From a virus, in the IMG/VR virus record IMGVR_UViG_3300045009_000660, positions 1 through 26,872 of that record: DNA of 26,872 nt; one strand, written 5' to 3'. Every line of letters begins with the position of its first letter. The stretch's first letter is position 1. The notes beneath the pieces were generated by a model. That model did not search any database, was not told where the DNA came from, and was given only the letters and a program-made list of their open reading frames with translations. The translations under genes and the position numbers were made by a program. Shown in pieces: positions 1-14,365 of the stretch.

Positions 1-380
1 ACATCCCAATCATAAGGGACATGAGCATAAAAATCATTCCAACTAAAGTTCCAAAATTTCACCAAATCTAAATTACAATCATCTTCCATAATCACCGCAT
101 ATGGACTATTTGAAGTTTCATACCAATGTTTGATTGCCTTAAGATGAGAAGTAGTGCATCCAATCTCACCAGATGTCATCATCTCAGGATAACGTCCAGT
201 AAGAATATCACTCAAATCATCATCTCTACCATCATATGCTGATATACGAGTATAGTTTTCGATTTCCCAATATTTAAACTGATCTTCCATATATTGGCGT
301 CTTTCTGGTTGACCATCTAAATTAAGGTAGTAAATGGGATCAAAGTTTTGGAGTTTGTATGCAGATTTATTTTTATCCAT
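1..380 (-). CDS. Glycosyltransferase family 25 (partial, C-terminus off window)
   Basis: This gene reads from 380 off the left edge, so only the first 126 codons are visible. The protein has the family 25 (LPS biosynthesis) pattern: IYYLNLDGQPERR near residue 16, RISAYDG, the GEIGCTTSHLKAI segment and the acidic metal-binding-type motif YAVIMEDD. GT25 enzymes transfer sugars such as galactose onto LPS cores or proteins from nucleotide donors. The ATG overlaps the stop of the upstream GT11 gene by one base (TAATG), which supports this start and translational coupling. It is a second GT25 besides the one at 2139-2870. Donor and acceptor cannot be told from sequence. Family call is firm; length and C-terminus are unknown. 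Confidence 0.85.
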   Translation of the reverse strand, partial: MDKNKSAYKLQNFDPIYYLNLDGQPERRQYMEDQFKYWEIENYTRISAYDGRDDDLSDILTGRYPEMMTSGEIGCTTSHLKAIKHWYETSNSPYAVIMEDDCNLDLVKFWNFSWNDFYAHVPYDWD

Positions 381-1234
381 TAAATAATTTCCCAATCACG
401 ACAATAAAGATCTTTTGTATTATGAAATGAATATGCGGAACCAAACCACATTTTTGGTGCTATTACCTTTTTATTTGGATTTTTTTGCAACCAAGCACCC
501 CACCAACTCATAGAACTATTGGCAATAATAGCATGAGAACAAAGAGACATTAAACATAGATCTACATACGGAACTAATGCTCCATCATCATATTTGTCCT
601 CTGGTTCAGAAAACATGAATCGATCTGGTTTAAAAAACTCTTGTTCTTTACACCATTCAATAGAATCCGAGAATACAAGAACTGGCATATTATCTGAAAA
701 ATATGCCAATGCCTTTTCGTAATATTCCAATGGTTGAACTGGATGTTGGTCTTGAAGATTCACATAAGCCCATTTAAATCCACGTTTATCTGTCAGATTA
801 GGATCTCCCCTACGAACATGTAAAAAAGCAACTTCTTGATCTCTAAATTGCTTCATGAATTCTTGACATGGTTCTAACCATTCTTTTTTGAAAGTGTAGT
901 CTTCACGAACTTCATCCTTTACATGTTTAAAATATTTTTCTGTTTGAAAAAACCCAACCACATTTGCACTATCAGGACAATCATTGAATAATTCTTCATC
1001 AAAATGAAAATGAGATTCTTGTGCAGGAATCATGTTATAAGAAAACTTGATATGATCTACATTTTTCATTTCAAATGCATCAAACAATCCATAATTATCA
1101 ATCTGGAATTCTGGATGGTGTGGTGGAATAGAGTATTCAAACTCCCTATTTCTAGCAATTCCTTTTACTGCGGCATGTTGGAACATTTGATTTCCCAAAC
1201 GACCCATAGTACCAATATTATCAAATCCAATCAT
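380..1234 (-). CDS. GT11 fucosyltransferase-family glycosyltransferase (copy 1)
   Basis: The 284-residue protein is a family 11 glycosyltransferase, the group containing alpha-1,2-fucosyltransferases that use GDP-L-fucose. Visible hallmarks are the N-terminal GRLGNQMFQ (residues 11-19), the donor-binding motif HVRRGD (139-144) and the C-terminal NSSMSWWGAWL region (239-249). Length is normal for bacterial GT11. It is a paralogue of the gene at 3598-4524, sharing FFQ(T/S)EKYFKH, DLCLMSLC and SWWGAWLQKN. It overlaps the upstream epimerase gene by 14 bases and the downstream GT25 start by one. No GDP-fucose synthesis genes are in the window, while a GDP-mannose 3,5-epimerase homologue is, so L-galactose is a possible donor sugar (inference). 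Confidence 0.9.
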   Translation of the reverse strand: MIGFDNIGTMGRLGNQMFQHAAVKGIARNREFEYSIPPHHPEFQIDNYGLFDAFEMKNVDHIKFSYNMIPAQESHFHFDEELFNDCPDSANVVGFFQTEKYFKHVKDEVREDYTFKKEWLEPCQEFMKQFRDQEVAFLHVRRGDPNLTDKRGFKWAYVNLQDQHPVQPLEYYEKALAYFSDNMPVLVFSDSIEWCKEQEFFKPDRFMFSEPEDKYDDGALVPYVDLCLMSLCSHAIIANSSMSWWGAWLQKNPNKKVIAPKMWFGSAYSFHNTKDLYCRDWEII

Positions 1235-2069
1235 TTTTCATTTCCTCAAATACTTTAGCAATCCCATTATCTATGGTAGTCTTTGGTACCCACCACCCAG
1301 TAATATAAGTATTTGCTTCATTCCTTTTATCCATTTGAACACTATCTTTTGCTAAACCTGGTTTAATATTTACCTCTCTACCAATTAGTTTAAACTGATC
1401 CCGAATGATTTCAGCAATCTCTTTAATAGAAGTTGATCTAAATGATGTAATGTGAAGAGGATCTTCTGGTTTAAAATCAGTATAATTTTCCATTATGATT
1501 TCTAATGCTTCACAACAATCTTCAGCATACAGAAATTGCCTTTCCTCTGTACCATCCGTCATCATCTCAAAATCACCTTTTTCAAATCCTTTTCGAATAA
1601 AATCAGTGATTACGTGTGCCTTTTCGTGATCATTTTCAATACCATAGACATTCCAGAATTTAACAGTCAATCCATTCAGTGCAGTGGTGTAAAGTTCACC
1701 AACTCTCTTCATCACACCATAAGGAGAGTAACTCATATTACTCATCTGAGAAGATGCGAATACAAATCTCTTATTATATTTTTCAAGAAGACCGAATGCA
1801 TTTGCAATGATGCGAGTATTATTATTGATAAAATCAAAAGTATGTTGATACTTTTTGAGATACCTAGAACCACCTACATCAAATGCTAAAAAGAAAACAA
1901 AATCAGAATCCATAATCACACGATGAAGTTCTGGATTAGGAATAACGGTTAGATCTTGATGTTCTCCATTGACAATGTCAAACTCATGAATCTTATGTCC
2001 CTTGTTACCCAAATATTTTGTCAAATAGGCACCGATCTGACCACCAGAACCCAATATCGCAATTTTCAT
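1221..2069 (-). CDS. NAD-dependent epimerase/dehydratase (extended SDR)
   Basis: This 282-residue protein is an extended short-chain dehydrogenase acting on nucleotide sugars. The Rossmann motif GSGGQIG lies at residues 7-13 and the catalytic Y-x-x-x-K is Y117-K121 (YGVMK), preceded by the serine-containing FASSQ. The C-terminal part resembles sugar-binding regions of UDP/GDP-sugar epimerases, but I cannot name the substrate. The first glycine-rich motif departs from the usual GxxGxxG only slightly. Its start ATG has an AGGA about ten bases upstream. It follows a 69-base AT-rich spacer after the GT25 gene and overlaps the GT11 gene downstream. It probably supplies or modifies a donor sugar for the neighbouring transferases. 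Confidence 0.85.
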   Translation of the reverse strand: MKIAILGSGGQIGAYLTKYLGNKGHKIHEFDIVNGEHQDLTVIPNPELHRVIMDSDFVFFLAFDVGGSRYLKKYQHTFDFINNNTRIIANAFGLLEKYNKRFVFASSQMSNMSYSPYGVMKRVGELYTTALNGLTVKFWNVYGIENDHEKAHVITDFIRKGFEKGDFEMMTDGTEERQFLYAEDCCEALEIIMENYTDFKPEDPLHITSFRSTSIKEIAEIIRDQFKLIGREVNIKPGLAKDSVQMDKRNEANTYITGWWVPKTTIDNGIAKVFEEMKNDWI

Positions 2070-2138: not shown

Positions 2139-2870
2139 TTAAACGAGTTTAGAAGGATAATAAGTGCTTGGACAATTGTTCAGATCTGGAACTCCTTGAA
2201 GGCTACCTAAATTATATTTAACGTTGTCAAAAAACGTATCAGATTGTGAAATATCCATTCCCATTTCTGTAATTTTAGTTGATGTTACTCCACCATTATG
2301 TCCATCTTGTTTAAAAATAGGCATATCCAAAGAATAAACATTATAGTATTTTTGTATTTCAGCATATCCATTATCCATGTGATCCATAAGTTGATAGCCA
2401 CAATACTTAGATATGCGAGAGCAAACTTTGCGATATTCTTCAGAAAAATAGATTATAGCATGTCCAGACAACATATTATATACTTGGACTATTTTATCAT
2501 TAATTTTTTTATAATGCAAAAATGGACCAGAAAAATTTAAATATCTTGCCCACTGAGATACTCCAATGAATAGAGCATCAGCATCATCAGGAACTTCAAT
2601 TTCAAATTCATAATTACCAGTAAATAAACAATCATCTTCCATTAACAAAAATGGAGTTTGAATTGAAGTATCAGACAAAACTTTATGTTGAGATCTGGCA
2701 CACCCAACTTTGCCGTCATCACACTTGACTCCAGAAACTCTTGTCACAAAAGAAAAGTTAAGTCTATTGAGAGTAGACTCAATGGATCTCCTTCTATCTT
2801 CTTTTTCATCAAGATTAATATAGTAAGTATTTAAATTTCTTAGGTTAATTTTCATATCAAATGTTACCAT
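2139..2870 (-). CDS. Glycosyltransferase family 25
   Basis: The 243-residue product carries GT25 landmarks: YYINLDEKEDRRRSI near the N-terminus, RVSGV, the VGCARSQHKVL segment and FLLMEDDCLF with the acidic cluster. Compared with the partial GT25 at the left edge it is more divergent after the EDD motif. Two starts are possible: ATG at 2870, overlapping the GT6 stop by 14 bases, or ATG at 2855, one base after that TGA, giving a 238-residue protein starting MKINLRNLN. Neither has a strong Shine-Dalgarno sequence. It is probably a cytoplasmic transferase in the same glycan pathway. The acceptor is unknown. Confidence 0.85.
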   Translation of the reverse strand: MVTFDMKINLRNLNTYYINLDEKEDRRRSIESTLNRLNFSFVTRVSGVKCDDGKVGCARSQHKVLSDTSIQTPFLLMEDDCLFTGNYEFEIEVPDDADALFIGVSQWARYLNFSGPFLHYKKINDKIVQVYNMLSGHAIIYFSEEYRKVCSRISKYCGYQLMDHMDNGYAEIQKYYNVYSLDMPIFKQDGHNGGVTSTKITEMGMDISQSDTFFDNVKYNLGSLQGVPDLNNCPSTYYPSKLV

Positions 2871-3588
2871 ATTGATCTAATTCTCTTTTTTCTTGATTAA
2901 ATGAGGTGTCAAAAGCATCCTTATTAACTGCAATCAGTTTTGGTTTCCAGGGGTAATTTGAATAATTAACCAGTTCTTCAGGAAACATATAACTTGGAGA
3001 AAGATCCTTTGGAGGATTCTCATTGAAATATTTGTTCAAATGACTTTCGTCATGCCACACTGCAACAATTCCATTCTCCTCATCTTTAGAAACTCTTTCA
3101 GAAATAGTCCTTGCCATTTCCAGAAACTTCTCAGACCTACCACCAGCAAATGCTGCAGCATAATACTTATTTCTATTATTATCAGGAACATAAGCAGTAG
3201 ACTGCTTTCTTACTTCATAAGGATAGACAGACTTATCCTCAAGCACTTTGTATGGATGAATTACACCAACCAAGTCTTCAAGAACTTCATCTCCAACCTT
3301 ATCCACAAAATAAACATCAGCATCAAACAGGTAAGTATAATCAAACTGTTTAAGATACTCTCTCTCAGAATAAATGTAGTTGTACTTTTTCAATGCTGGT
3401 TCAGGCCAGATCTTATGTTCGATTTTACTAACTTTAATATTATCAGAAGTCTCTTCTAAATCATTATCAGTAAAAAGAAGACAACTAATATCATGACCTA
3501 CCAAAAAATTATTTTCAATAGATTTAAGAAGTTTTTCAACAAATTGAATATACCTTCCAGTTGCAATTGTAATTACACAAATTTTCAT
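2857..3588 (-). CDS. GT6 family glycosyltransferase (ABO/alpha-galactosyltransferase relative)
   Basis: This 243-residue protein matches glycosyltransferase family 6, which contains the animal blood-group A/B transferases and alpha-1,3-galactosyltransferase plus a few bacterial and phage members. Visible signatures are LFDADVYF with a DxD metal motif at 89-91, YYAAAFAGGRSEKFLEMA (142-159) and the very characteristic WHDESHLNKYF (178-188), where E181 matches the catalytic-site glutamate of animal enzymes. Family members transfer Gal or GalNAc in alpha-1,3 linkage, often onto an alpha-1,2-fucosylated galactose. Like other microbial forms it lacks the animal N-terminal membrane anchor. Most bacterial GT6 proteins are reported to have NxN in place of DxD (recalled), so DAD here suggests metal dependence. 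It sits nine bases after a GT11 gene. Confidence 0.88.
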   Translation of the reverse strand: MKICVITIATGRYIQFVEKLLKSIENNFLVGHDISCLLFTDNDLEETSDNIKVSKIEHKIWPEPALKKYNYIYSEREYLKQFDYTYLFDADVYFVDKVGDEVLEDLVGVIHPYKVLEDKSVYPYEVRKQSTAYVPDNNRNKYYAAAFAGGRSEKFLEMARTISERVSKDEENGIVAVWHDESHLNKYFNENPPKDLSPSYMFPEELVNYSNYPWKPKLIAVNKDAFDTSFNQEKRELDQYGNI

Positions 3589-3597
3589 TTTAATAAC

Positions 3598-4524
3598 TCA
3601 GTTATAGGTCATTTGAATCCAACCATTTGGAATGAGATCTTTCGTATCATTACTCTTCATAAGATCTGGACCAAACCATGGTTTTGGAACTATTATATCA
3701 TTCGTTCTATTCTTTTGCAACCAAGCACCCCACCAACTCAGAGAACTTGTTGCTGTAATGCCGCCATTACACAAACTCATTAAACAGAGATCAGTATAAG
3801 GAATAGTTGATGATCTAAATTCAGGATTACCATCTAACCATAACCAACACTTACCAGAAAATTTTTCATTATTTTCAGATAAATAAAACCTTTCATCTTT
3901 AAAAAATTCTTGATCTTTACACCAATCAATTTCATCACTACAGACAATTACAGAAACATTATCATTGAATTTTTTTAAAGCTGGTGCATAATACTCATCA
4001 AAAGTTTTATTCTTACAAAGATGTTCAAATCCATGGGCATCACCTCTACGAATATGCAAGAAAATAACCTCACTAAACTGAGATACAAAATCTTTACAAG
4101 GTTCTAAAATTTCATCAATAAATTCAAAATCTTCACGAATTTCTTGTTCAATATGTTTGAAGTATTTTTCAGATTGAAAAAATCCATCAATATTTGTATT
4201 GTCTTCTACTTCATTAAAAAGTTTTTCATCAAATTCAAATGATTTTTCAATTTTATTTTTGATTTGCGGGTTTGAAGATGCAAGTGATTCAAAACTATAT
4301 CTTTGTTGATCTCCAACATTTTTATTTAAAATTCCAATATTACTTTCCTTTAAATGAGGCATTTTAAAAGGAAATTGAATACAATAATCAGTTAATGATA
4401 AGATATCTTTATCAGGAATACACCAATCAAATCCACGATTTGCAGCAATGCCACGAAGAGCAGCATACTGAAACATTTGATTTCCCAATCTTCCATTGCT
4501 TCCTAATCTGTCGTATGAAATCAT
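3598..4524 (-). CDS. GT11 fucosyltransferase-family glycosyltransferase (copy 2)
   Basis: The 308-residue protein is a family 11 glycosyltransferase with GRLGNQMFQ (11-19), HIRRGD (157-162) and TSSLSWWGAWLQKN (259-272). It is 24 residues longer than the other GT11 in the window, with insertions around residues 60-95 and 220-238. The two share the same scaffold, so they are diverged duplicates and probably act on different acceptors. Its ATG overlaps the TGA of the upstream gene (ATGA), and the GT6 gene follows nine bases later. In animals GT11 makes the alpha-1,2-fucosyl acceptor that GT6 extends, and this adjacency suggests the same order here. Confidence 0.9.
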   Translation of the reverse strand: MISYDRLGSNGRLGNQMFQYAALRGIAANRGFDWCIPDKDILSLTDYCIQFPFKMPHLKESNIGILNKNVGDQQRYSFESLASSNPQIKNKIEKSFEFDEKLFNEVEDNTNIDGFFQSEKYFKHIEQEIREDFEFIDEILEPCKDFVSQFSEVIFLHIRRGDAHGFEHLCKNKTFDEYYAPALKKFNDNVSVIVCSDEIDWCKDQEFFKDERFYLSENNEKFSGKCWLWLDGNPEFRSSTIPYTDLCLMSLCNGGITATSSLSWWGAWLQKNRTNDIIVPKPWFGPDLMKSNDTKDLIPNGWIQMTYN

Positions 4525-5399
4525 AGTTTTAATTCTGATGGATCAAATTTATAATCAGAGTCTAAAAATACTCTGTTAGGATATGTAGGTTGATAAAAAT
4601 TATCTCTCACAAGTGTCTGATTAAAATTCAATAGATGTGAGATCCAACTATAAGAACTTTTAGACATAATTAAAAGATTCGCATTTGACATATGATAAAT
4701 ATCATCTATTGGATGTTCATTTAATTTTAAAACAATCTCAAAGTTTTTATTTGATAATTCTAACAAATCTATGAAATCATTTTTATTTCCTTGAGAATGA
4801 ATATAAACGCACACATTTTTATTATATAATCTTTCCTTTAAAATATCAAAAATATTTTGAATATGACTAGAATCCTTATAAACAAGATATGTCTCCATTT
4901 CTGGATAAGTTGGGACATCGCAAGAATTAAGTGCTCTTAAATGAAGACTAATATTGAAAACATTTTCATCAAAATAAATTTGATTAGAATAGATAAGATT
5001 TTTTTTTATTTCTTTCAAATAATCATTTTGATATATTTCATCAATCAATGGAAATCCATTTTTGATTATAAAATTCTTATCAACTTCCACACAAATATTT
5101 TCTTTACAGTCTTCATTCTCGCCAATAAAGTCTAATAGATCTTGATATTTACCACTAAAGTCATATTCAACATCAAACTTTTGTGACTTACTTAAATTGA
5201 AAAATTTAGTAAAATCTTCACTCCACTTTTCTTTGGGAACACTATTATACTGATAATGTGATATGTTTATAAATGGATCAGCAAAAAAATCTACCTCAAG
5301 TTTTTTACAAATTCCATAAAGAACTAGATTCCATTGAGCAATAGAACCTATTCCTTCCTTTCCAAATCCATTAACATTGGTTTTTAAAAAAATAGACAT
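4521..5399 (-). CDS. Putative fucosyltransferase-like GT-B glycosyltransferase
   Basis: The 292-residue protein has no confident family name. It shows weak but patterned similarity to the fucosyltransferase fold seen in its neighbours: a glycine-rich N-terminal GFGKEGIGSIAQ (11-22), an H-x-R motif in SLHLRA (H153, R155) placed like the HxRRGD of GT11, and a C-terminal SKSSYSWISHLLN (246-258) that resembles the GT11 SSxSWWGAWL segment. I infer a distant GT11/GT23-type enzyme. It overlaps the next GT11 gene by four bases (ATGA), which supports a joint role. No membrane segment is visible. It could be inactive or use another donor. Confidence 0.55.
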   Translation of the reverse strand: MSIFLKTNVNGFGKEGIGSIAQWNLVLYGICKKLEVDFFADPFINISHYQYNSVPKEKWSEDFTKFFNLSKSQKFDVEYDFSGKYQDLLDFIGENEDCKENICVEVDKNFIIKNGFPLIDEIYQNDYLKEIKKNLIYSNQIYFDENVFNISLHLRALNSCDVPTYPEMETYLVYKDSSHIQNIFDILKERLYNKNVCVYIHSQGNKNDFIDLLELSNKNFEIVLKLNEHPIDDIYHMSNANLLIMSKSSYSWISHLLNFNQTLVRDNFYQPTYPNRVFLDSDYKFDPSELKL

Positions 5400-5401
5400 A
5401 A

Positions 5402-5530
5402 TTAAAAATTCAAATATTTACGAATTTCGTGCAAGTTAGCATCACACTGAATATAATCTTTAGGAATACTTCGCAAAGTTTTTAAAAATTCTTCAGAAAT
5501 AAGTTCTGGTTTAACATATTTATCCATCAT
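5402..5530 (-). CDS. Small unknown protein, 42 aa
   Basis: A short frame between two glycan genes that I do not recognise. It begins ATGATG, overlapping the stop of the upstream sugar dehydrogenase (TGA at 5529-5527), and ends two bases before the next ATG. It fills the otherwise empty 127-base gap exactly, as expected for a real gene in a compact operon. The product starts MMDKYVKPELISEEFLKTL and ends HEIRKYLNF, an acidic/basic helical composition without a membrane segment. It could instead be the remnant of a larger gene. Confidence 0.45.
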   Translation of the reverse strand: MMDKYVKPELISEEFLKTLRSIPKDYIQCDANLHEIRKYLNF

Positions 5531-6744
5531 TTTACTATTCCCCAATAATCAACAACTTTTTTATCAACATAATTTAAATCACCGAATAATTTATCGGGAT
5601 GCATAATCACCACCACATCCGAGTTATCAATACATTCCTGAGGATTTGAGAACTCATTAATGTTCATATCAAGATTAGAATATGTTTCAAAAATAGAATC
5701 ATAACCATTTACTTCAATTTCAAGATCTAAAAGATCTCTTATTAATCTTGCAGATGGAGATCCAATCACAACAGGAGAGTTTGGTTTAAATGAAATTCCA
5801 AGAACTCCAACTTTTTGATAAGATTTAAGCTTACTCAAAATACTTCCATAAACCATTTCATTTACTTCTTCTGCAAAAATCAAGTTTTTTGCAGTTTTTT
5901 TTCTATCCTTTGCAAATTTTATAAATGCAGAAGTATCTCTTGGAAAACAAGTTCCACCATAAGGAGTTCCATACCCAAAAAAGTAAGGAGAAATTCTTTT
6001 ATCTAATCCAATTGTTTGAGTAATATTATGAATATTTACATTATTCATTCCTTCGCAAAGTTGTCCTAAAAAATTTGCAAAAGTAATCTTATTTACGATA
6101 TAAGCATTTAATGCAACCTTAGCAACTTCTGCTTCCTCTAAAGTTAAAATTTTTCTTGGTGGATCATTATCATGAAATTTATACCAAATTGATTGAGTCC
6201 TTGTGATGTCTTCAATATTGTTTGCACCAACTAAAAAGAATTCTGGATTTTTAAAATCTTTTATCACACTACCAAGTTTGACAAAATCGGGAACATAAGA
6301 AAACCCAAACCCCTCACCATGAATTCTTTTAGAAATCTTTTCAACGTGTTTAATTAAGTTTTTAATGGTTCCTGGAAGAACCGTTGAAGAAAGAACAATG
6401 AGATGATAATCTTTAGTACTTTTTCTCAAGTTCATCGCAAGATCTGTGAGTGCAGATTCAACAAACTCAGATGAATAACCATTGTCACCAAGTTGAGTAT
6501 TAACTAAAATAATAGTCGCATCAGTTTCATCAACCGCTCTTTGATAAGAATCAGTAAATCCAATAAAATTTACATGAGGAAAAATATCAGATAATCCTGG
6601 TTCATAAAAAGGAACTTCTTTATTATTAAGTTTATCTAAAATAAACTCATTTTTATCAACACCAAGAACTTTATTTCCGGATTTTGCAAGACAACATGCA
6701 AGAGGTAATCCTAACTTTCCCAATCCAACAAAACTAATTTTCAT
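5527..6744 (-). CDS. UDP-glucose/GDP-mannose dehydrogenase family protein
   Basis: The 405-residue protein is a nucleotide-sugar 6-dehydrogenase, an NAD enzyme oxidising a UDP- or GDP-hexose to the uronic acid in two steps. An N-terminal Rossmann motif GLGKLGLP (7-14), SSTV with T121, K209 and N213 in the central helix, and catalytic C266 in GGTCFPRD (263-270) are present, followed by the C-terminal domain GISFKPNSPVV. Length is typical. An oddity is the PEFLREG-type loop, which here reads PDFVKLG, so the first glutamate is aspartate and the second is leucine. That makes the substrate uncertain. It begins at ATGA overlapping the upstream ligase-like gene. Confidence 0.88.
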   Translation of the reverse strand: MKISFVGLGKLGLPLACCLAKSGNKVLGVDKNEFILDKLNNKEVPFYEPGLSDIFPHVNFIGFTDSYQRAVDETDATIILVNTQLGDNGYSSEFVESALTDLAMNLRKSTKDYHLIVLSSTVLPGTIKNLIKHVEKISKRIHGEGFGFSYVPDFVKLGSVIKDFKNPEFFLVGANNIEDITRTQSIWYKFHDNDPPRKILTLEEAEVAKVALNAYIVNKITFANFLGQLCEGMNNVNIHNITQTIGLDKRISPYFFGYGTPYGGTCFPRDTSAFIKFAKDRKKTAKNLIFAEEVNEMVYGSILSKLKSYQKVGVLGISFKPNSPVVIGSPSARLIRDLLDLEIEVNGYDSIFETYSNLDMNINEFSNPQECIDNSDVVVIMHPDKLFGDLNYVDKKVVDYWGIVK

Positions 6745-7955
6745 TTCGATATAATCCTCACTAATTTATTTTTCCAGTAAATATCATATTGCTCATCTTT
6801 TGCAATAACAAATTCAGTGTCCAATCCAACATTTTCTTTTACCCAATCTGCATAAGGTTTTAGTGCATCAAAATTTTCTTCATTTCTAAATCTAACATGA
6901 AGAATTAAAGTTTTTCTTGGAATATTTACCTCACATCTCCATTTTTCAATTATAGATCCTACAGTATGTGAAATTGGAGCAACAATCCACCAACCAATTG
7001 CTTTTTTTACCTCTGGTCCATTGTAATAATCAACTCCACGACCAATTATATCATAAAGAACATAATATTGTCTACCATTGTTTTCAATTTTCTTCATCTT
7101 TCCCCTATCACCACACCTATAACGAAAGATAGGAGTTTGATAGTTATTGAAGTCTGTAACTACAATATATCCCTCTTCACATTCTTTTACCGGATTTTCA
7201 TCATCATCAAGAATTTCAACAATTCCTTGTTCCATTATTACACGAAGATTTCCATATCCATCAGTTGAGGCAACAGTTGGGAGTTCAGCAAGACCATATT
7301 GTTCGTGGAATTCTTTGACGAAAGGAATCAATCTTTCCTTGTGTCCATATGAACTTTCACTACACCAATGAATTTTAATATCTTTAAGAACGTCAGCATG
7401 TCCCGCATCAATAATCATTTCACATAATTGACGAATAGATCCTCCTGGTCCATGAATAAGAAATGGTTTATGTTTAACTACCCAATCAACATGCTTTTGA
7501 GAAAGTGTTTTATAATTCATTGCTTTCACATTTCTCAAACTATCATAAAATGGATAATTTGGTTCTCCAGAAATTAATCTAAAAATCCATTCATTTTTTC
7601 TACCCATTCGCATCCAACTACGAGTAAAAATAGCATCCTTTCTATACCAGGAAGAAGAAGGAACCCAAATTACTCTTGGTTGTCCTGTAGATCCAGATGT
7701 TTCGTGCTGTCTCATTTTCTCATTAGGAAAATTAGGATTATCTGGGAGATCTGATTTAGTCATTACTGGAAGACTATAAAAATCATTCCAAGTTTGAATA
7801 TCAATTCCAAACTTTGATGATGTTTCTTTAAGTCGTTCAAATTGAAAATTCTTTAATTCACCAATAGTTTTATTTTCCATCTCAATAAAGAAATTAAGGT
7901 ATGAAATTTGATTAAAGGTAAACCTATCAAAAATTTTATACAGTAATTTTTTCAT
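6741..7955 (-). CDS. PaaK/CapK-like AMP-forming ligase (adenylate-forming enzyme)
   Basis: This roughly 404-residue protein belongs to the phenylacetate-CoA ligase-like group found in capsule and O-antigen clusters (CapK). The adenylate-forming P-loop TSGSTGQP lies at about residues 86-93, and the later FRYRCGDRGKM and IIGRGVDY segments match the family's adenylate-binding and hinge regions. The reaction would be ATP-dependent activation of a carboxylic acid, perhaps for acylating an amino sugar. I chose ATG at 7955 because it overlaps the aminotransferase stop as ATGA. An upstream GTG at 7976 would add seven residues and has no ribosome site. It is slightly short for PaaK (about 430). The substrate is unknown. 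Confidence 0.8.
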   Translation of the reverse strand: MKKLLYKIFDRFTFNQISYLNFFIEMENKTIGELKNFQFERLKETSSKFGIDIQTWNDFYSLPVMTKSDLPDNPNFPNEKMRQHETSGSTGQPRVIWVPSSSWYRKDAIFTRSWMRMGRKNEWIFRLISGEPNYPFYDSLRNVKAMNYKTLSQKHVDWVVKHKPFLIHGPGGSIRQLCEMIIDAGHADVLKDIKIHWCSESSYGHKERLIPFVKEFHEQYGLAELPTVASTDGYGNLRVIMEQGIVEILDDDENPVKECEEGYIVVTDFNNYQTPIFRYRCGDRGKMKKIENNGRQYYVLYDIIGRGVDYYNGPEVKKAIGWWIVAPISHTVGSIIEKWRCEVNIPRKTLILHVRFRNEENFDALKPYADWVKENVGLDTEFVIAKDEQYDIYWKNKLVRIISK

Positions 7956-9019
7956 ATAATTGGAAAATCTAAACACTTTTGAATGATGTAATCAACCTCA
8001 TCATTTGTTATTTTATTATGTATAGGAAGTAAAATAATACTATTCGAAACTTGAGTTGCATTTGGAAGACCTGATTTTTTCCAAAGTTCTTGTTGATGTA
8101 CCGCAGTCCAACATTTTACCACAATTCCATTAGAAAACAAATATTCTACCATTTTATTTCTAATTTGCGAATCAACCATAATTCCATAAAAGAAATAATT
8201 TGACCGACAATAATTCGGAATTACTTGAACCTTAAATTTTGTAGATAATTCTTCTGTATATTTTTTAGCAATTTGATTCCTTCTTTCTACATATGAATCA
8301 AGTTTCTTTAGTTGTTCTCGTAAAATCGCAGCCTCAATGTCACACATTCTAAAGTTAAGTCCAAATCGATTGTGAATATATTCATAAGACTTTTTATTTG
8401 AAGAGTAACCATGATTTACAATTGATCTACAAATTTCTGCAAGTTGATCATTGTTAGTGGTGATTAGTCCACCCTCACCTGATGTAATAATCTTTGATCT
8501 TTGAAAACTAAAGCAATGAAGATCAACTTGAGTTCCAATTTGTTGATCTTTATAAGTTGAACCTAAACTCTCAGCACTATCCGCAATTAGGTAAACTCCA
8601 AGTTTTTTAAATTCATCATAATTACAAGGAACTCCACCAACATCAACAAGCATTACGACATTAACATCCTTAGGAACATCTTCTGCACGAATGTTCCAAT
8701 TATCTAAATCACAATCAACAAGTTCAACATCATCCAATACAAACTTTGCAGCATTTGCAGATGCAATAAAAGTAAAAGATGGAACTGCTATTTTTTTAAT
8801 TTCAAAATAAACTTCTTTGAGTGCAAGAAGTGAAGTCATTAATGCAGTAGTGCAATTAGAAACTGGAATTGCATGTTTACAACCAAGTCTTTGTTGAAAT
8901 TGTTTTTCTAAAAGTTCAAGATTTTCTCCTTTTACACCAATCCCTTGAGAAAGAGATTTGAGTGCGGCATTAATTTCTTCTGAACCAATATCCACATCGT
9001 CCCAGTTAATTAATTTCAT
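7952..9019 (-). CDS. DegT/DnrJ/EryC1/StrS family sugar aminotransferase
   Basis: The protein of about 355 residues is a PLP-dependent aminotransferase of nucleotide keto-sugars. The PLP lysine is in FSFQRSKIITSGEGG (K176 from this start), the cofactor-ring aspartate is in LIADSAESLGS (D147), and NFRMCDIEAAIL is the usual family segment. It would convert a 3- or 4-keto sugar to an amino sugar using glutamate. ATG at 9019 (MKLINWDDVD) fits family N-termini. An ATG at 9037 would add six residues and a longer overlap with the kinase-like gene. The following ligase-like gene could activate the acid that acylates the amino group (inference). Confidence 0.9.
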   Translation of the reverse strand: MKLINWDDVDIGSEEINAALKSLSQGIGVKGENLELLEKQFQQRLGCKHAIPVSNCTTALMTSLLALKEVYFEIKKIAVPSFTFIASANAAKFVLDDVELVDCDLDNWNIRAEDVPKDVNVVMLVDVGGVPCNYDEFKKLGVYLIADSAESLGSTYKDQQIGTQVDLHCFSFQRSKIITSGEGGLITTNNDQLAEICRSIVNHGYSSNKKSYEYIHNRFGLNFRMCDIEAAILREQLKKLDSYVERRNQIAKKYTEELSTKFKVQVIPNYCRSNYFFYGIMVDSQIRNKMVEYLFSNGIVVKCWTAVHQQELWKKSGLPNATQVSNSIILLPIHNKITNDEVDYIIQKCLDFPII

Positions 9020-9995
9020 ACTTTTCGCAAAACTCATTAATAAGAATTACTGAGGTATAATATGCAACTTTTGATCTTGCATCTACACCATCAAAATCAA
9101 GAAGAAATGGAACAAGACTTGCAAAATGCATTACTTCATTCCACTCTGTTTTTCTCATTACATCTGCAGGATCTTCTAGGGAATGATCATAAAGAACTTG
9201 TGGGAGCGATTTTTTAAGATTTTCACAAAGTTTGAATACATCATTATCAAATAATTTAAAGTTACTTCCATCAAATTCAAATTGACGAGAAGCAATCATT
9301 TCATATTTTCCATTTACAGAGTGCCAAAACTTTCCATAGTCATAATAATAATCACAATAATCATAACCACGGGGATCAATCATAATGAATTTATCATTTA
9401 CACGATCAATCAAAACATTGGAGAAATGGAGATCAGAATGACTCCAACGACCAACAAATTCTGGTTGGACTGTTTGAAGAAATTTTTGTGTTTTAAATTT
9501 TTCCGCAAGCACTGAGATGTTTTTATATTCATTATCATTTACAATAACGGTTTGTTGTTGAATAAGATCTTTAAAAAAATCAGATTTTTTGGACAGCTCT
9601 TCAAGACGATTACTTAAGCGAGTAAAGTGCATTATATTAAAGTAATCTTCAGGTGTTGGGAGAACTTGATACTGATATAGTCTACGAGAAAGTTTTGTAA
9701 TTTTATTTGCCCAATAGAGTACTTCCTTTTCATCAATTTCTCCAGAAAGAATTAATCTACGAAGAGTTGGAAGATCATAATGTTCCATCTCATAAAATGC
9801 TTTATTACCATCTATTCCATAAAAAATAATACGAGGAAAGTAATCTTTGAATTCTTCAGGAATATTTTCAATGAACTCATATTCATCTACAAGCTTCATC
9901 ATCCGTTCGTCAGCAGCTTCTTTATGAACCCTGCTGACCAAGATAACCTTTGTTTTTCCACCACTTTCTTGTTTTAAATAATCAGAATTATTCAT
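9006..9995 (-). CDS. APH/choline-kinase-fold phosphotransferase (putative sugar kinase)
   Basis: This 329-residue protein shows the aminoglycoside-phosphotransferase/kinase core: WSHSDLHFSNVLID with H186, catalytic-type D188 and N193, then FIMIDPRG with the metal-binding D207. The N-terminal lobe is weakly conserved. In glycan clusters such proteins phosphorylate sugars or related alcohols, but the substrate here is unknown. The start is decided by a GAGG about nine bases before ATG 9995. A GTG at 10010 that would add five residues coincides with this ribosome site. It overlaps the HAD phosphatase gene by eight bases, so kinase and phosphatase are co-translated, perhaps as successive steps in one nucleotide-sugar route. 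Confidence 0.75.
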   Translation of the reverse strand: MNNSDYLKQESGGKTKVILVSRVHKEAADERMMKLVDEYEFIENIPEEFKDYFPRIIFYGIDGNKAFYEMEHYDLPTLRRLILSGEIDEKEVLYWANKITKLSRRLYQYQVLPTPEDYFNIMHFTRLSNRLEELSKKSDFFKDLIQQQTVIVNDNEYKNISVLAEKFKTQKFLQTVQPEFVGRWSHSDLHFSNVLIDRVNDKFIMIDPRGYDYCDYYYDYGKFWHSVNGKYEMIASRQFEFDGSNFKLFDNDVFKLCENLKKSLPQVLYDHSLEDPADVMRKTEWNEVMHFASLVPFLLDFDGVDARSKVAYYTSVILINEFCEKYEIN

Positions 9996-10305
9996 TGAAA
10001 AAATCCTCACTATTAATTGCTTTATCGTCTATGTAATAATCTGCTGCATATTTAACTCCGGTTCTTAATTCCTGAAACTTGACACCCCACCCTGTTAATT
10101 GATCATAAGTTTCAACATACCAATTTCTTTTAGTCCAAAAACCCCTTGCAGTTTCAATTATAACATAATTACCTTCTTCAGACAGCATATTAACTTTTTT
10201 AATTCTATTTGGAAAAGGAAGTGCTTGAAGATAATTCCAAGAACCATCTTCATTCTTTTTCGTGTCACAAAGAGTATTGTCCAAATCAATTACATACCTT
10301 TTCAT
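9988..10305 (-). CDS. Small HAD-superfamily phosphatase
   Basis: The 105-residue protein is a minimal (capless) HAD hydrolase of the type found in capsule and polysaccharide loci. Motif I is VIDLDNTLCDT with nucleophile D7 and acid/base D9. ETARG at 51-55 supplies motif II, K85 lies in the motif III region and YYIDDKAI with D93/D94 is motif IV. Size matches the small capsular phosphatases. It likely removes phosphate from a sugar phosphate. ATG at 10305 overlaps the epimerase TGA (ATGA). A close functional link to the kinase-like gene that follows is inferred from the overlap. Confidence 0.85.
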   Translation of the reverse strand: MKRYVIDLDNTLCDTKKNEDGSWNYLQALPFPNRIKKVNMLSEEGNYVIIETARGFWTKRNWYVETYDQLTGWGVKFQELRTGVKYAADYYIDDKAINSEDFFNE

Positions 10306-11351
10306 TTGTTTTTAATTTGCTCCAAAATCCAATTATAAGTTTTGCGAATACCTTCTTCAAGGGTCTGAGAATAATCCCAACCCAATTCTTTACGAATTAA
10401 ATCGTTATTAGAGTTACGTCCACGAACACCGAGAGGAGCATCTAGAATATATTCTTTATCGACAAATTTACTAGCAACCTTTGCAGCAGTCTCTACTAGT
10501 TGATTAATAGTTACCATTTCTTCTGAACCAATATTTACTGGCCCAATAAAGTCAGATTCCATCAAACGACGAGTTGCTTCAATACACTCATCAATATAAA
10601 GGAATGAACGAGTTTGTTTTCCATCACCCCAGACTTCAATGGTTCCACCTTCTTTTGGAAGATATGCTACCTTACGACAAATTGCTGCTGGAGACTTCTC
10701 TCTACCACCTTCCCAGGTTCCTTCAGGACCAAAGATATTATGATACCTGCATACACGAACAGGTATACCATAGTTGCGGTGATAGGCAAAATATAACCTT
10801 TCAGAAAAGAGTTTTTCCCATCCATACTCAGAGTCTGGTGCAGCAGGATATGCTGAGTCTTCACGACAGTCAGGATTATCAGGATCTAGTTGATTGTGTT
10901 CTGGATACATACAAGCTGAACTACTGTAGAACACCTTAGTTTTATTTAATTCACAGTGTTCATTCAATTCCTTAATGGCACGAAGAACATTTAAATTGAT
11001 TGATGCAGAGTTTTGCATTACATCAGAATCGTGCTCTCCTGTGAAAATGTATCCTGCTCCACCCATATCAGCAGCAAACTGATAAACTTCATCAAATGAT
11101 AAAACATATCTTGAAGGAACAAAATTATAAAAGTTTCCTAGATATCCTTTAAATTGAACTATACGTTCGGTGAAGTAAAAATCAGTAAGATCTCCTTGAA
11201 TAAATTCATTTGCTTTCGTAGGAGAAAACTCTGGTCTTTTTAAATCTACACCACGAACCCAATAACCTTCGGATCGTAGTCTTTTAACCATATGGCTTCC
11301 AATAAAACCACCTGCACCAAGTACAAGTGCAGTTTTTTGATGTTCACTCAT
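10302..11351 (-). CDS. GDP-mannose 3,5-epimerase-like SDR enzyme
   Basis: The 349-residue protein closely follows the plant GDP-mannose 3,5-epimerase pattern, the enzyme turning GDP-D-mannose into GDP-L-galactose/GDP-L-gulose. It has GAGGFIGSH (12-20), FAADMGGAGYIFT (92-104), SSSACMYPE with C147, YGWEK with Y176 and K180, and a GTWEGGREKSPAA segment with K219. In the Arabidopsis enzyme the matching catalytic residues are C145, Y174, K178 and K217, a constant offset of two, so activity looks intact. This is the first gene of the long glycan operon. A promoter-like region with AATAAATA lies about 20 bases upstream. No obvious Shine-Dalgarno precedes the ATG. Confidence 0.88.
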   Translation of the reverse strand: MSEHQKTALVLGAGGFIGSHMVKRLRSEGYWVRGVDLKRPEFSPTKANEFIQGDLTDFYFTERIVQFKGYLGNFYNFVPSRYVLSFDEVYQFAADMGGAGYIFTGEHDSDVMQNSASINLNVLRAIKELNEHCELNKTKVFYSSSACMYPEHNQLDPDNPDCREDSAYPAAPDSEYGWEKLFSERLYFAYHRNYGIPVRVCRYHNIFGPEGTWEGGREKSPAAICRKVAYLPKEGGTIEVWGDGKQTRSFLYIDECIEATRRLMESDFIGPVNIGSEEMVTINQLVETAAKVASKFVDKEYILDAPLGVRGRNSNNDLIRKELGWDYSQTLEEGIRKTYNWILEQIKNK

Positions 11352-11658: not shown

Positions 11659-12405
11659 TTATGAATTGATAAGATTTTCAATTTTAGACATACTTTCAAC
11701 AATTTTTTCGTGAGTGATCTTTCCTGGAAGTTTAACATTAGGATCTGGGAGTTCAGATTCTAAATTTGAAACAAATAGTTGTCTAGATGCATCGTATTCA
11801 TTTTGCAAAAGAGATAATGCAATAGCATACCTTTGTTGTTTCATATCATTTTGTTTTTGTACAAATTCTTTTTCTTGCAACTCCAATTGTTCTTTTTGTG
11901 CTGCTAATTGCAATTCTTGTTGTTCTTTTTGTGCTGCTAATTGTAACTCCACTTGTTCTTTTTGTGCTGCTAATTGTAACTCCACTTGTTCTTTTTGTGC
12001 TGCTAATTGTAACTCCACTTGTTCTTTTTGTGCTGCTAATTGTAACTCTTGTATTCTTATTTGTTCTTTTTGTGCTGCTAATTGCAACTCCGCTTGTTCT
12101 TTTTGTGCTGCTAATTGCAACTCCACTTGTTCTTTTTGTGCTGCTAATTGTAACTCTTGTTGTTCTTTTTGTGCTGCTAATTGTAACTCTTGTTGTTCTT
12201 TTTGTGCTGCTAATTGTAACTCTTGTAGTTTTAATTGTTCTTTTTGAACTTTCAGTTGTTCTTTTTGTGATTCAATATTCAATTTTTGTGTTTCAATATT
12301 CAATTTTTGTGTTTCAACGTCAAAAGCAAATCTTTCTCGTTGAAGTTTGAGACTTTCGGCTGAAGACTCTAATTGTGATTGTGGTGTAGAGGGTGTAGAA
12401 GTCAT
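11659..12405 (-). CDS. Hendecad-repeat coiled-coil protein
   Basis: The 248-residue protein is unassigned. Residues 63-175 hold ten copies of LQLAAQKEQ, nine of the steps being 11 residues and one being 14 (an inserted IRI-type piece at about 116-118). Eleven-residue periodicity predicts a long, nearly straight coiled-coil rod. Before the repeats are imperfect copies such as KLNIETQ/KLNIESQKEQLKVQ. After them a non-repetitive tail (QRYAIALSLLQNEYDASRQ...) ends KIENLINS. The N-terminus is Ser/Thr/Pro-rich. There is no signal peptide or membrane segment. A rod or spacer role in the virion or host cell is only inference. A strong terminator follows. The upstream 80 bases are AT-rich (TTATATATAA) with no certain promoter. 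Confidence 0.8.
   Translation of the reverse strand: MTSTPSTPQSQLESSAESLKLQRERFAFDVETQKLNIETQKLNIESQKEQLKVQKEQLKLQELQLAAQKEQQELQLAAQKEQQELQLAAQKEQVELQLAAQKEQAELQLAAQKEQIRIQELQLAAQKEQVELQLAAQKEQVELQLAAQKEQVELQLAAQKEQQELQLAAQKEQLELQEKEFVQKQNDMKQQRYAIALSLLQNEYDASRQLFVSNLESELPDPNVKLPGKITHEKIVESMSKIENLINS
11881..12219 (-). repeat. 33-bp tandem repeat array within coding sequence
   Basis: Ten near-identical units, each about 33 bp and one 42 bp, encode the hendecads of the gene at 11659-12405. Several units are identical at the DNA level, for example the three consecutive VELQLAAQKEQ units. This suggests recent expansion by slippage or recombination. Unit length is always a multiple of three, so copy number can change without frameshift. 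Confidence 0.9.
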
Positions 12406-13168: not shown

Positions 13169-13253
13169 CGGAAAGAGTGAGATTCGAACTCACGGAAGCT
13201 TTCACCTCGACAGTTTTCAAGACTGTTGCCTTAAACCACTCGGCCATCTTTCC
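13169..13253 (-). tRNA. trnS-UGA: tRNA-Ser (UGA)
   Basis: A full class II cloverleaf: acceptor GGAAAGA/TCTTTCC with G73, anticodon arm ACAGT-CTTGAAA-ACTGT giving anticodon TGA, a long variable arm and T-loop TTCGAAT. CCA is not encoded. The 5' end immediately follows the stop codon of the zinc-ribbon gene. Confidence 0.95.
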
Positions 13254-13505
13254 TTATCGTACCTCAAAGTCCAGTTTACGAACCTTACGATTTCTTCTTT
13301 TTTCTTGAAATTGTAAATCTTCTCTGGTAAGAACTGCTGATTTTGAGACTTCTTTTATTGAGTTTAGCATTATCACTCTAGACAAGTCAATGGCAGTAAT
13401 TTTATCACCACAAACAGTTGCCATATTTGGACAACCACAAGACACTGTTTTGGTTGAGTGTGAAGTCAATTCTTTATTACAATCTTTACATCTAATGATT
13501 AACAT
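13254..13505 (-). CDS. Zinc-ribbon small protein
   Basis: The 83-residue protein has an N-terminal CxxC (C6, C9) and a second CGC cluster (C23, C25) plus C32, as in a small zinc ribbon, then a helical segment (ITAIDLSRVIMLNS) and a basic tail (EKRRNRKVRK). It resembles small conserved T4-like cyanophage proteins of unknown function. A perfect TATAAATA late promoter lies about 15 bases upstream of the ATG, and AAAGGGA serves as the ribosome site. The gene is wedged between tRNA-Asn and tRNA-Ser, and its TAA abuts the tRNA-Ser 5' end. A nucleic-acid-binding role is inferred from the ribbon. Confidence 0.75.
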   Translation of the reverse strand: MLIIRCKDCNKELTSHSTKTVSCGCPNMATVCGDKITAIDLSRVIMLNSIKEVSKSAVLTREDLQFQEKRRNRKVRKLDFEVR

Positions 13506-13520
13506 TGTCCCTTTTTTACG

Positions 13521-13528
13521 TATTTATA
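13521..13528 (-). promoter_or_regulatory. T4-type late promoter TATAAATA
   Basis: A perfect TATAAATA on the minus strand (13528-13521) between tRNA-Asn and the zinc-ribbon gene. Confidence 0.7.
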
Positions 13529-13534
13529 GTGAGA

Positions 13535-13606
13535 CTCCACAACCTGGATTCGAACCAGGGACCAAGTGATTAACAGTCACCGACTCTACCACTGAGCTAT
13601 TGTGGA
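13535..13606 (-). tRNA. trnN-GUU: tRNA-Asn (GUU)
   Basis: A cloverleaf with acceptor TCCACAA/TTGTGGA and G73, anticodon loop CTGTTAA (anticodon GTT) and T-loop TTCGAAT. CCA is not encoded. Confidence 0.95.
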
Positions 13607-13655
13607 ATAATGGAACGTCTTTCCAAAAATCAAACTATTTGGTGACCACTCCAAG

Positions 13656-13727
13656 AGCGAAATAGCGGATTCGAACCGCTGACGTTCTGCTTGGAAGGCA
13701 GACATTCTACCGCTGAATTAATTTCGC
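13656..13727 (-). tRNA. trnG-UCC: tRNA-Gly (UCC)
   Basis: Acceptor GCGAAAT/ATTTCGC, anticodon arm TCTGC-CTTCCAA-GCAGA (anticodon TCC) and T-loop TTCGAAT. The 5' end lies one base after a candidate structured RNA. CCA is not encoded. Confidence 0.95.
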
Positions 13728-13728
13728 A

Positions 13729-13819
13729 ATGTGAAAGTGAAAGGTTTCACATCCTTTTACTGTATCTTTTGTAGGGGTACCGCACTTTTGGCGTCACTCT
13801 CAGCGCACTTTCTTCACAC
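13729..13819 (-). ncRNA. Candidate structured ncRNA upstream of tRNA-Gly
   Basis: This non-coding stretch is visibly more GC-rich than its surroundings. Its predicted transcript starts near 13819, from the sigma70-type promoter at 13854-13826. The 5' segment GTGTGAA (13819-13813) plus AGTG (13809-13806) can pair with CACTTTCACAT (13739-13729) as an 11-bp closing helix with a GAA bulge. Inside, AAAGG/CCTTT forms a hairpin. GCG/CGC and GGTACC-containing segments fill the core. It lacks a T-loop and anticodon arm, so it is not a tRNA. RNase P cleavage of tRNA-Gly would release it. T4 tRNA operons also carry stable RNAs of unknown role (RNA C and D). Function unknown; could also be only a leader. 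Confidence 0.5.
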
Positions 13820-13825
13820 CAAACA

Positions 13826-13854
13826 AATATAAGAAATAATGAGTATTATGTCAA
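13826..13854 (-). promoter_or_regulatory. Early sigma70-type promoter for ncRNA/tRNA-Gly
   Basis: Minus strand: perfect TTGACA (13854-13849), a 17-base spacer and TATATT (13831-13826). The -35 box lies two bases from the tRNA-Thr 3' end. Predicted start is near 13819. Confidence 0.8.
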
Positions 13855-13855
13855 G

Positions 13856-13927
13856 AGCCCTCAAACGGATTTGAACCGATGACCTTCGCTTTACAAAAGC
13901 GTTGCTCTACCACTGAGCTACAAGGGC
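13856..13927 (-). tRNA. trnT-UGU: tRNA-Thr (UGU)
   Basis: Acceptor GCCCTTG/TGAGGGC with two G-U pairs, anticodon loop TTTGTAA (anticodon TGT) on a stem with one A-A mismatch, and T-loop TTCAAAT. CCA is not encoded. A hairpin terminator lies between it and the upstream tmRNA. Confidence 0.92.
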
Positions 13928-13929
13928 AT

Positions 13930-13953
13930 AAAAAAGAGGGCACAAATACCCTC
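13930..13953 (-). terminator. Terminator after tmRNA
   Basis: GAGGG (13953-13949), an 8-base loop and CCCTC (13940-13936), followed by six T on the minus strand. It would end or attenuate the permuted tmRNA precursor just before tRNA-Thr. Confidence 0.75.
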
Positions 13954-13954
13954 C

Positions 13955-14155: not shown

Positions 14156-14158
14156 CAA

Positions 14159-14190
14159 TATTTATAGCACGATTTATGAGATGGTGTCAA
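14159..14190 (-). promoter_or_regulatory. Composite early/late promoter of tmRNA
   Basis: Minus strand: perfect TTGACA (14190-14185), an 18-base spacer, then TATAAATA (14166-14159). The last element serves as a -10 (TATAAA) and is also a perfect T4-type late promoter. The predicted start is near 14154, just before the tmRNA acceptor piece. Confidence 0.7.
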
Positions 14191-14193
14191 GTA

Positions 14194-14267
14194 TCGGCGT
14201 GGCAGGATTCGAACCTGCGACCCTTCGCTCCCAAAGCGAATGCGCTACCAAACTGCGCTACACACCG
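14194..14267 (-). tRNA. trnP-UGG: tRNA-Pro (UGG)
   Basis: Acceptor CGGTGTG/CACGCCG with A73, anticodon arm TTCGC-TTTGGGA-GCGAA (anticodon TGG) and T-loop TTCGAAT. CCA is not encoded. Confidence 0.95.
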
Positions 14268-14278
14268 AAACGTCGAAA

Positions 14279-14351: not shown

Positions 14352-14365
14352 ATAAACTCAGTATA

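What the first reader, a model, noticed from the sequence alone, without database searches (positions are those of the whole stretch)
2857..4524. H/ABO-like glycan pathway in a phage: GT11 next to GT6
Seen: a GT11 (HIRRGD, SWWGAWL) is followed nine bases later by a GT6 with DAD and HDESHLNKYF. A second GT11 lies at 380-1234 and a third fucosyltransferase-like gene at 4521-5399. Known: in animals GT11 makes Fuc-alpha-1,2-Gal (H antigen) and GT6 adds GalNAc/Gal to it (A/B antigen), and a bacterial GT6 (Bacteroides ovatus) also uses fucosylated galactose. Inference: the phage encodes a two-step histo-blood-group-like cap, on host LPS or on its own virion.
Basis: partly seen in the sequence, partly recalled or inferred. 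Interest (0 to 1): 0.8.

Follow-up and report, generated by a model that had tools for sequence, protein, structure and literature searches.

The report
Cyanophage blood-group-like sugar-capping gene pair
A virus of marine cyanobacteria carries, side by side, the two kinds of enzyme that animals use to build ABO blood-group sugars; the gene order recurs in many related viruses, and here the linked sugar supply suggests the first sugar may be L-galactose instead of fucose.

Summary
Observation confirmed. 2857-3588(-) is a genuine GT6 (Pfam E 1.8e-41; AlphaFold model TM 0.86 to BoGT6a, DAD motif). 3598-4524 and 380-1234 are GT11. 4521-5399 is only fold-level fucosyltransferase-like. The record is a 26.9-kb fragment of a T4-like cyanophage.

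Interpretation partly supported. In dereplicated phage GT6 loci GT11 lies immediately upstream in 20 of 40, against 3.6 expected. Compact GMD-Fcl-GT11-GT6 and GME-GT11-GT6 operons recur. In bacteria 43 of 80 GT6 loci have GT11 within 5 kb, and two encode GT6-GT11 fusion proteins. Against this: the pair is not always adjacent, GT11 is common in phage sugar clusters even without GT6, and the GT6 acceptor pocket differs from H-antigen-using enzymes at two positions.

Main new point: this cluster carries GDP-mannose 3,5-epimerase (GME, GDP-L-galactose) and no GMD/Fcl. Across phages the donor module (GME or GMD-Fcl) tracks the GT11, not the GT6. I therefore favour a two-step cap, L-Gal (or L-Fuc) by GT11, then probably Gal by GT6. 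Not shown: activity, acceptor, and whether host LPS or virion is the target. GT6 in cyanophages, and GT11+GT6 in E. coli O86, were already known.

The parts
2857..3588 (-). GT6 (ABO-type family) retaining glycosyltransferase, DXD type
   Evidence: Pfam E 1.8e-41; PDB GTB/BoGT6a; AF2 pLDDT 90, TM 0.86-0.87 to BoGT6a; catalytic residues kept
3598..4524 (-). GT11 (alpha-1,2-fucosyltransferase family), directly upstream of GT6
   Evidence: Pfam 65.6 bits; PHROG 2644 E 4e-93; groups with GT11s of GME-bearing phages
380..1234 (-). second GT11
   Evidence: Pfam 77.4 bits; in GME-associated part of GT11 tree
4521..5399 (-). putative GT-B fucosyltransferase-like protein, directly upstream of the GT11
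   Evidence: weak GT11 match 15.3 bits; fold nearest POFUT2/FUT8/NodZ, Z 8.9, low-confidence model
10302..11351 (-). GDP-mannose 3,5-epimerase (GME): GDP-Man to GDP-L-Gal (and GDP-L-gulose), first gene of the sugar cluster
   Evidence: PDB plant GME 2c59 E 1.8e-78; the motifs with the catalytic Cys, Tyr-x-x-x-Lys and Lys (SSACxYPE, YGxEKL, GREKxPAA) are kept
2139..2870 (-). GT25-like transferase (sub-threshold), overlaps the GT6 end by 14 bases
   Evidence: Pfam GT25 E 0.0011, below cut-off
1221..2069 (-). NAD-dependent sugar-nucleotide epimerase/dehydratase
   Evidence: Pfam Epimerase E 1.5e-22
3..395 (-). GT25, cut off by the record end
   Evidence: Pfam GT25 E 4e-12
5527..6744 (-). nucleotide-sugar (UDP-Glc-type) 6-dehydrogenase
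   Evidence: TIGR03026 260 bits, over cut-off
6741..7976 (-). PaaK/FlxY-like adenylate-forming enzyme (distant)
   Evidence: NCBIfam E 4e-9, below cut-off
7952..9037 (-). DegT/DnrJ sugar aminotransferase
   Evidence: Pfam E 6e-76
9006..10010 (-). kinase-like protein (distant)
   Evidence: PHROG 21938 E 5e-29 of unknown function; PHROG 18305 kinase E 6e-4
9988..10305 (-). HAD capsule-biosynthesis phosphatase-like
   Evidence: TIGR01689 E 5e-7, below cut-off

Best explanation
The GT11 and GT6 genes form a two-step branching module inside a phage-encoded surface-glycan cluster. Step 1 (inferred): GT11 adds an alpha-L-sugar, in the family typically alpha-1,2, to a terminal galactose-type residue; the donor in this phage is most likely the GDP-L-galactose made by its own GME, or else GDP-L-fucose from the host. 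Step 2 (inferred): GT6, a metal-dependent retaining transferase, adds an alpha-1,3-linked sugar, probably Gal, to that branched acceptor, giving an ABO-like cap. The host's outer-membrane LPS/O-antigen during infection is the likeliest carrier. Shown here: family membership, fold, conserved active-site residues, non-random gene order, donor-module linkage. Not shown: any activity, linkage, acceptor or target.
For: GT6 fold and active site: (D211, D213, H233, W300, H301, D302, E303 kept in all 31 phage GT6). GT11 directly upstream of GT6 in 20 of 40 dereplicated loci (3.6 expected, P < 1e-5); two separate cyanophage GT6 clades both show the pairing. Four-gene GMD-Fcl-GT11-GT6 and three-gene GME-GT11-GT6 operons (Bellamy, SynMITS9220M01, S-CAM9, S-PRM1, S-8S55). 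Bacteria: 43/80 within 5 kb, two GT6-GT11 fusion proteins, 0 of 14 GT25-centred control regions that lack GT6. Donor module tracks GT11: 3 label changes on the GT11 tree, 6 on the GT6 tree, about 14.6 when shuffled. The window's GT6 is closest to GMD-phage GT6s, its GT11 groups with GME-phage GT11s. Donor of GT6: no Gly at 266/268 (AAA), and PMC4692239 proposes that GalNAc needs Gly there. Precedent: E. coli O86 WbwK (GT11) plus WbnI (GT6) make blood group B (PMC4202792).
Against: In the window GME is about 6.7 kb (seven genes between) upstream of the GT6, not adjacent to the pair. A second GT11 and a possible third fucosyltransferase make it unclear which enzyme uses which donor. Cluster-level GT6/GT11 co-occurrence in phages is not above a GT25 control. 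Positions 235 (Tyr) and 245 (Pro) of the acceptor pocket are unlike GTA, GTB and BoGT6a. The record is a fragment, so GMD could lie outside it. Some GT11s of GMD phages fall inside the GME-type part of the tree (DSL-LC02, S-SRM01), and one GME locus (L227) falls among GMD types. GT11 also contains an alpha-1,3 enzyme (HhFT2, PMC4202792).
Confidence: 0.55

Rival explanations
1. Generic modular LPS/capsule cluster: GT11 and GT6 add sugars at different points of a larger glycan and are neighbours because cyanophage sugar genes are shuffled as cassettes; there is no sequential H-to-A/B step.
For: GT11 occurs in 22/41 GT25-centred phage loci without GT6, 16/39 with it; GT11 lies 3-16 kb from GT6 in G005-G009 and G012-G014; the cluster has many other sugar genes.
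Against: Strong excess of GT11 exactly one gene upstream, minimal operons containing only donor genes, GT11 and GT6, fusion proteins in bacteria.
Confidence: 0.27
2. Canonical H/ABO pathway: GT11 uses GDP-L-fucose from the host to make Fuc-alpha-1,2-Gal, and GT6 adds Gal or GalNAc; GME feeds some other transferase. (This overlaps with the best explanation, which leaves the donor open.)
For: GT11 and GT6 families' characterised members; E. coli O86 and BoGT6a precedents; many phages do carry GMD-Fcl with GT11-GT6.
Against: Window and its four nearest relatives have GME and no full GMD; the window GT11s lie in the GME-associated part of the tree; pocket residues 235/245 changed.
Confidence: 0.25
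3. GT6 here acts like the mammalian alpha-1,3-galactosyltransferase on an unsubstituted galactoside, without needing a GT11 product.
For: Bulky residue at position 235 (Tyr; Trp in a3GT, Ser/Gly in GTB/GTA/BoGT6a) and AAA at 266-268 (HAA in a3GT). That Trp at 235 excludes fucosylated acceptors in a3GT is recalled from memory, not checked.
Against: His at 233 is kept as in GTB and BoGT6a (Gln in a3GT); sequence scores favour GTB and BoGT6a over a3GT; GT11 pairing.
Confidence: 0.13
4. The glycan decorates the phage's own virion proteins rather than host LPS (a question of target, independent of the rivals above).
For: No Wzx, Wzy, WaaL or oligosaccharyltransferase was recognised among the window proteins examined; a related cluster lies near a tail-fibre gene (ACG-2014f).
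Against: No protein-glycosylation enzyme was recognised either; the GT25/GT11/sugar-nucleotide content is typical of LPS clusters; published reading of such cyanophage genes is host surface change (PMC9602691).
Confidence: 0.25

Closest known systems
E. coli O86 WbwK (GT11) + WbnI (GT6), blood-group-B O-antigen
   Same: GT11 and GT6 acting in sequence in surface-polysaccharide synthesis (PMC4202792)
   Different: Bacterial chromosome; GDP-fucose donor. The phage cluster has GME in place of GMD-Fcl and a GT6 with diverged acceptor-pocket residues; activity untested
Bacteroides ovatus BoGT6a
   Same: Same fold (TM 0.86-0.87, rmsd 1.6 A), catalytic WHDE and acceptor-side His kept
   Different: NXN and metal-independent; GalNAc donor with AGG at 266-268. 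Phage enzyme is DAD and AAA, predicted metal-dependent and Gal-using
Prochlorococcus phage P-SSM2 GT6 (PSSM2_268) and its LPS cluster
   Same: Cyanophage GT6, 53% identical; GT11 in the same operon. Cyanophage GT6 genes are noted in the literature (PMC3961637)
   Different: GMD-Fcl donor module, AGG at 266-268, two genes between GT11 and GT6
Cyanophages Bellamy, SynMITS9220M01, S-CAM9, S-PRM1, S-8S55
   Same: GT11-GT6 with GME in the same operon, here as a tight three-gene cassette
   Different: Second GT6 clade (about 33% identical), QGC at 266-268; annotated as UDP-glucose 4-epimerase, hypothetical protein or plain glycosyltransferase
Cyanophage S-SCSM1 (PMC9602691)
   Same: GMD, Fcl, GME and alpha-1,2-fucosyltransferase annotated together
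   Different: No GT6; no ABO-like step in the passages of the paper that I read

Membership tests
CAZy GT6 | Match to GT6 profile over the catalytic domain | tested here: met
   142 bits, cut-off 25, residues 3-212
CAZy GT6 | GT-A fold like GTA/GTB/BoGT6a | tested here: met
   AF2 pLDDT 90; Foldseek TM 0.86-0.87
CAZy GT6 | DXD (metal) or NXN motif and WHDE catalytic block | tested here: met
   DAD, WHDE
CAZy GT6 | Retaining alpha-1,3-Gal/GalNAc transfer | not testable with these tools
   no assay
CAZy GT11 | Match to GT11 profile and HxRRxD motif | tested here: met
   65.6 bits, HIRRGD
CAZy GT11 | alpha-1,2 transfer from GDP-L-Fuc | not testable with these tools
   no assay; the family also holds an alpha-1,3 enzyme and donor linkage here points to GDP-L-Gal
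H/ABO-like two-step pathway (E. coli O86 type) | GT11 and GT6 in one operon | tested here: met
   9-base gap, same strand; conserved order
H/ABO-like two-step pathway (E. coli O86 type) | GDP-L-fucose supply genes (GMD, Fcl) in the cluster | tested here: inconclusive
   No full GMD among the window's sugar genes or in G001-G004; GME instead; the record is a fragment and the host may supply GDP-Fuc
H/ABO-like two-step pathway (E. coli O86 type) | Acceptor-pocket residues of H-antigen-using GT6 (His233, Ser/Gly235, Thr245) | tested here: inconclusive
   His233 kept; 235 is Tyr and 245 is Pro, which shows divergence but not loss of function
H/ABO-like two-step pathway (E. coli O86 type) | GT6 requires the GT11 product | not testable with these tools
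   no assay
GDP-mannose 3,5-epimerase | Sequence match and catalytic Cys, Tyr-x-x-x-Lys, Lys | tested here: met
   E 1.8e-78 to plant GME over residues 5-347, all three motifs aligned

The most novel reading that the evidence does not exclude
Cyanophages encode two interchangeable versions of an ABO-like cap: an L-fucose version (GMD-Fcl-GT11-GT6) and an L-galactose version (GME-GT11-GT6). In the latter the GT11 is an alpha-L-galactosyltransferase and the product is an L-Gal analogue of the B antigen. GME was found in only 7 of 291 sampled cyanobacterial genomes, so most hosts could not make this donor themselves.
Probability: 0.42. Interest if true: 0.8.

Novelty: new variant of a known kind. 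Interest (0 to 1): 0.6.

Why it matters
It gives a concrete, testable pathway for otherwise vague 'LPS genes' of cyanophages, with a clear prediction (L-Gal in GME phages, L-Fuc in GMD phages; Gal for AAA-type GT6, GalNAc possible for the AGG type). It supplies natural GT6-GT11 fusions and minimal operons for assay. If the cap is placed on host LPS it would be a blood-group-like surface change made by a virus, possibly blocking superinfection; if on virions, a phage analogue of antigen mimicry.

Tried and rejected
1) Cluster-level co-occurrence as evidence: all 29 GT6-bearing records searched also have GT11, but a GT25-centred phage control showed GT11 is just as common without GT6 (22/41 against 16/39), so I rest on gene order instead. 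2) A suspected GT11-GT6 fusion in phage contig L281 was two overlapping ORFs. 3) 'GME and GMD are mutually exclusive' is false in general: S-SCSM1 has both, though none of 135 GT6 loci showed both within the fetched flanks. 4) Human faecal 'phage' contigs MT836857 and MT836906 carry GT11 but no GT6. 5) PDB sequence search of the GT11 found no significant solved relative, so no residue-level donor test for L-Fuc against L-Gal was possible. 7) Fold match of 4521-5399 to POFUT/FUT8/NodZ is near the level unrelated folds can reach and is not used as proof. 8) No held paper describes a phage GT11-GT6 pair or a phage L-galactose cap; most subscription journals are not in that library.

Full report
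WHAT IS THERE. The record is a 26.9-kb IMG/VR virus fragment of a T4-like cyanophage: its nrdA/nrdB region is 74% identical to Synechococcus phage S-SM2. All sugar genes lie on the minus strand. In transcription order: GME (11351-10302), HAD phosphatase-like, kinase-like, DegT aminotransferase, PaaK-like adenylate-forming protein, nucleotide-sugar dehydrogenase, a fucosyltransferase-like protein (5399-4521), GT11 (4524-3598), GT6 (3588-2857), a GT25-like gene, an epimerase, a second GT11 (1234-380) and a GT25 cut by the record end.

THE TWO ENZYMES. The GT6 passes Pfam's cut-off by 117 bits, is closest in the PDB to human GTB and BoGT6a, and its AlphaFold model (pLDDT 90, pTM 0.88) superposes on BoGT6a with TM 0.86-0.87 and 1.6 A rmsd, and on GTB structures including H-antigen complexes. 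Across 31 phage GT6 proteins both Asp of DXD, His233, Trp300, His301, Asp302 and Glu303 (human numbering) are invariant. This is the metal-dependent (DXD) half of the family; the NXN half of the tree is mostly Bacteroidota. Both GT11 genes pass Pfam. The protein at 4521-5399 is only structurally fucosyltransferase-like.

IS THE PAIRING REAL? In annotated phages GT6 occurs in 71 records, nearly all cyanophages plus 640-kb uncultured phages. Every GT6-bearing record I searched whole (29) also has GT11. A control corrected this: phage loci centred on GT25 have GT11 as often without GT6 (22/41) as with it (16/39), so presence alone means little. Gene order is informative. After dereplication at 85% GT6 identity, 40 loci have GT11 within about 6.8 kb, and it is the gene immediately upstream in 20, against 3.6 expected by random placement (P < 1e-5). 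The phage GT6s fall into two separate cyanophage clades (plus a megaphage pair), and both cyanophage clades show the adjacency. In some relatives GT11 lies 3-16 kb upstream instead, so adjacency is a strong tendency, not a rule. The loci are related by descent, so the P value overstates the number of independent events.

BACTERIA. A scan of species genomes gave 80 GT6 loci. 43 have GT11 within 5 kb and 27 have it adjacent or fused. A Hoeflea MAG and a Planctomycetota MAG encode GT6 and GT11 as one protein, the strongest sequence sign that the two activities work on one product. Of 20 GT25-centred control regions from genomes that carry GT6, GT11 was present only in the six that also contain GT6. 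GT6s of Dependentiae and Chlamydiae mostly have no GT11 near, so GT6 does not always go with GT11.

THE DONOR. The gene at 10302-11351 is a GDP-mannose 3,5-epimerase (E 1.8e-78 to the plant enzyme; catalytic motifs aligned), the source of GDP-L-galactose. No GMD/Fcl is seen in the cluster, and the four nearest relatives also have GME and no full GMD. Elsewhere in phages two compact operons recur: GMD-Fcl-GT11-GT6 and GME-GT11-GT6; of 135 GT6 loci 30 have GME nearby, 24 have GMD, and none has both within the fetched flanks. On a dereplicated set the donor type changes 3 times on the GT11 tree and 6 times on the GT6 tree, against about 14.6 when shuffled (a larger GT11 tree needs 4, shuffled 12.3). 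The window is an example of the exchange: its GT6 is nearest to GMD-phage GT6s, its GT11 groups with GME-phage GT11s. The simplest reading is that the linked donor is the GT11's substrate: L-Fuc in one version, L-Gal (6-hydroxy-L-fucose) in the other. This is inference. Exceptions exist (S-SCSM1 with both; DSL-LC02, S-SRM01 and L227 out of place; B23 with neither). A GME hit was found in 7 of 291 genomes of the class of Moorena (Cyanobacteria), all 4.2 Mb or larger, so marine picocyanobacterial hosts probably lack it.

STEP TWO. PMC4692239 puts forward the hypothesis that GT6 needs Gly at 266 or 268 to use GalNAc. The window group has Ala-Ala-Ala (predicts Gal), the P-SSM2 group Ala-Gly-Gly as in BoGT6a (GalNAc possible), the Bellamy/S-CAM9 group Gln-Gly-Cys. 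Acceptor side: His233 is kept, but 235 is Tyr (Ser/Gly in GTB/GTA, Gly in BoGT6a, Trp in a3GT) and 245 is Pro (Thr in GTB, BoGT6a and a3GT). The acceptor may thus not be the canonical H disaccharide.

TARGET AND FUNCTION. Not determined. No polymerase, flippase or ligase was recognised among the window proteins examined, so the glycan would use host LPS machinery or be placed on proteins. Published reading of such cyanophage genes is alteration of the host surface (PMC9602691).

NOVELTY. GT6 in cyanophages (PMC3961637), GT11+GT6 in E. coli O86 (PMC4202792), and GMD, Fcl, GME and an alpha-1,2-fucosyltransferase in cyanophage S-SCSM1 (PMC9602691) are known separately. I found no paper on the phage GT11-GT6 operon, the donor-module exchange or an L-galactose version, within an open-access library only. 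I rate it a new variant of a known kind.

Noticed in passing
window 13937-14185 (-): A tmRNA, matching Rfam cyano_tmRNA (101 bits) and tmRNA_permuted (89 bits), lies in a tRNA cluster (six tRNAs, 13169-14352) of this phage; a permuted tmRNA in a phage is unusual.
   Followed up: partly
window 24114-25565 (-): Flavin-dependent tryptophan halogenase family protein (Pfam E 7e-100; PHROG 2928), function in a phage unclear.
   Followed up: no
window 11875-12222: About ten copies of a 33-base tandem repeat encoding a coiled-coil-like (LQLAAQKEQ) stretch in ORF 11659-12405(-); long ORFs are also open on the + strand there; no family hit.
   Followed up: no
L109 4416-6590; L132 4998-6629: Natural GT6-GT11 fusion proteins in a Hoeflea MAG and a Planctomycetota MAG, good assay subjects.
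   Followed up: yes
L028 2230-3831 (LR756502.1, 642-kb uncultured phage): GT6 appears fused in one 534-aa frame behind an N-terminal region that looks like a GT2 transferase by eye.
   Followed up: no
L068, L070, L079, L083 and others: Many Dependentiae and Chlamydiae carry DXD-type GT6 without GT11 nearby; the 2014 paper knew of only two bacterial DXD-type GT6.
   Followed up: partly
phage records S-CAM9, S-T4, S-SSM7, S-SM2 and others: Cyanophage GME genes are widely annotated as 'UDP-glucose 4-epimerase'.
   Followed up: yes
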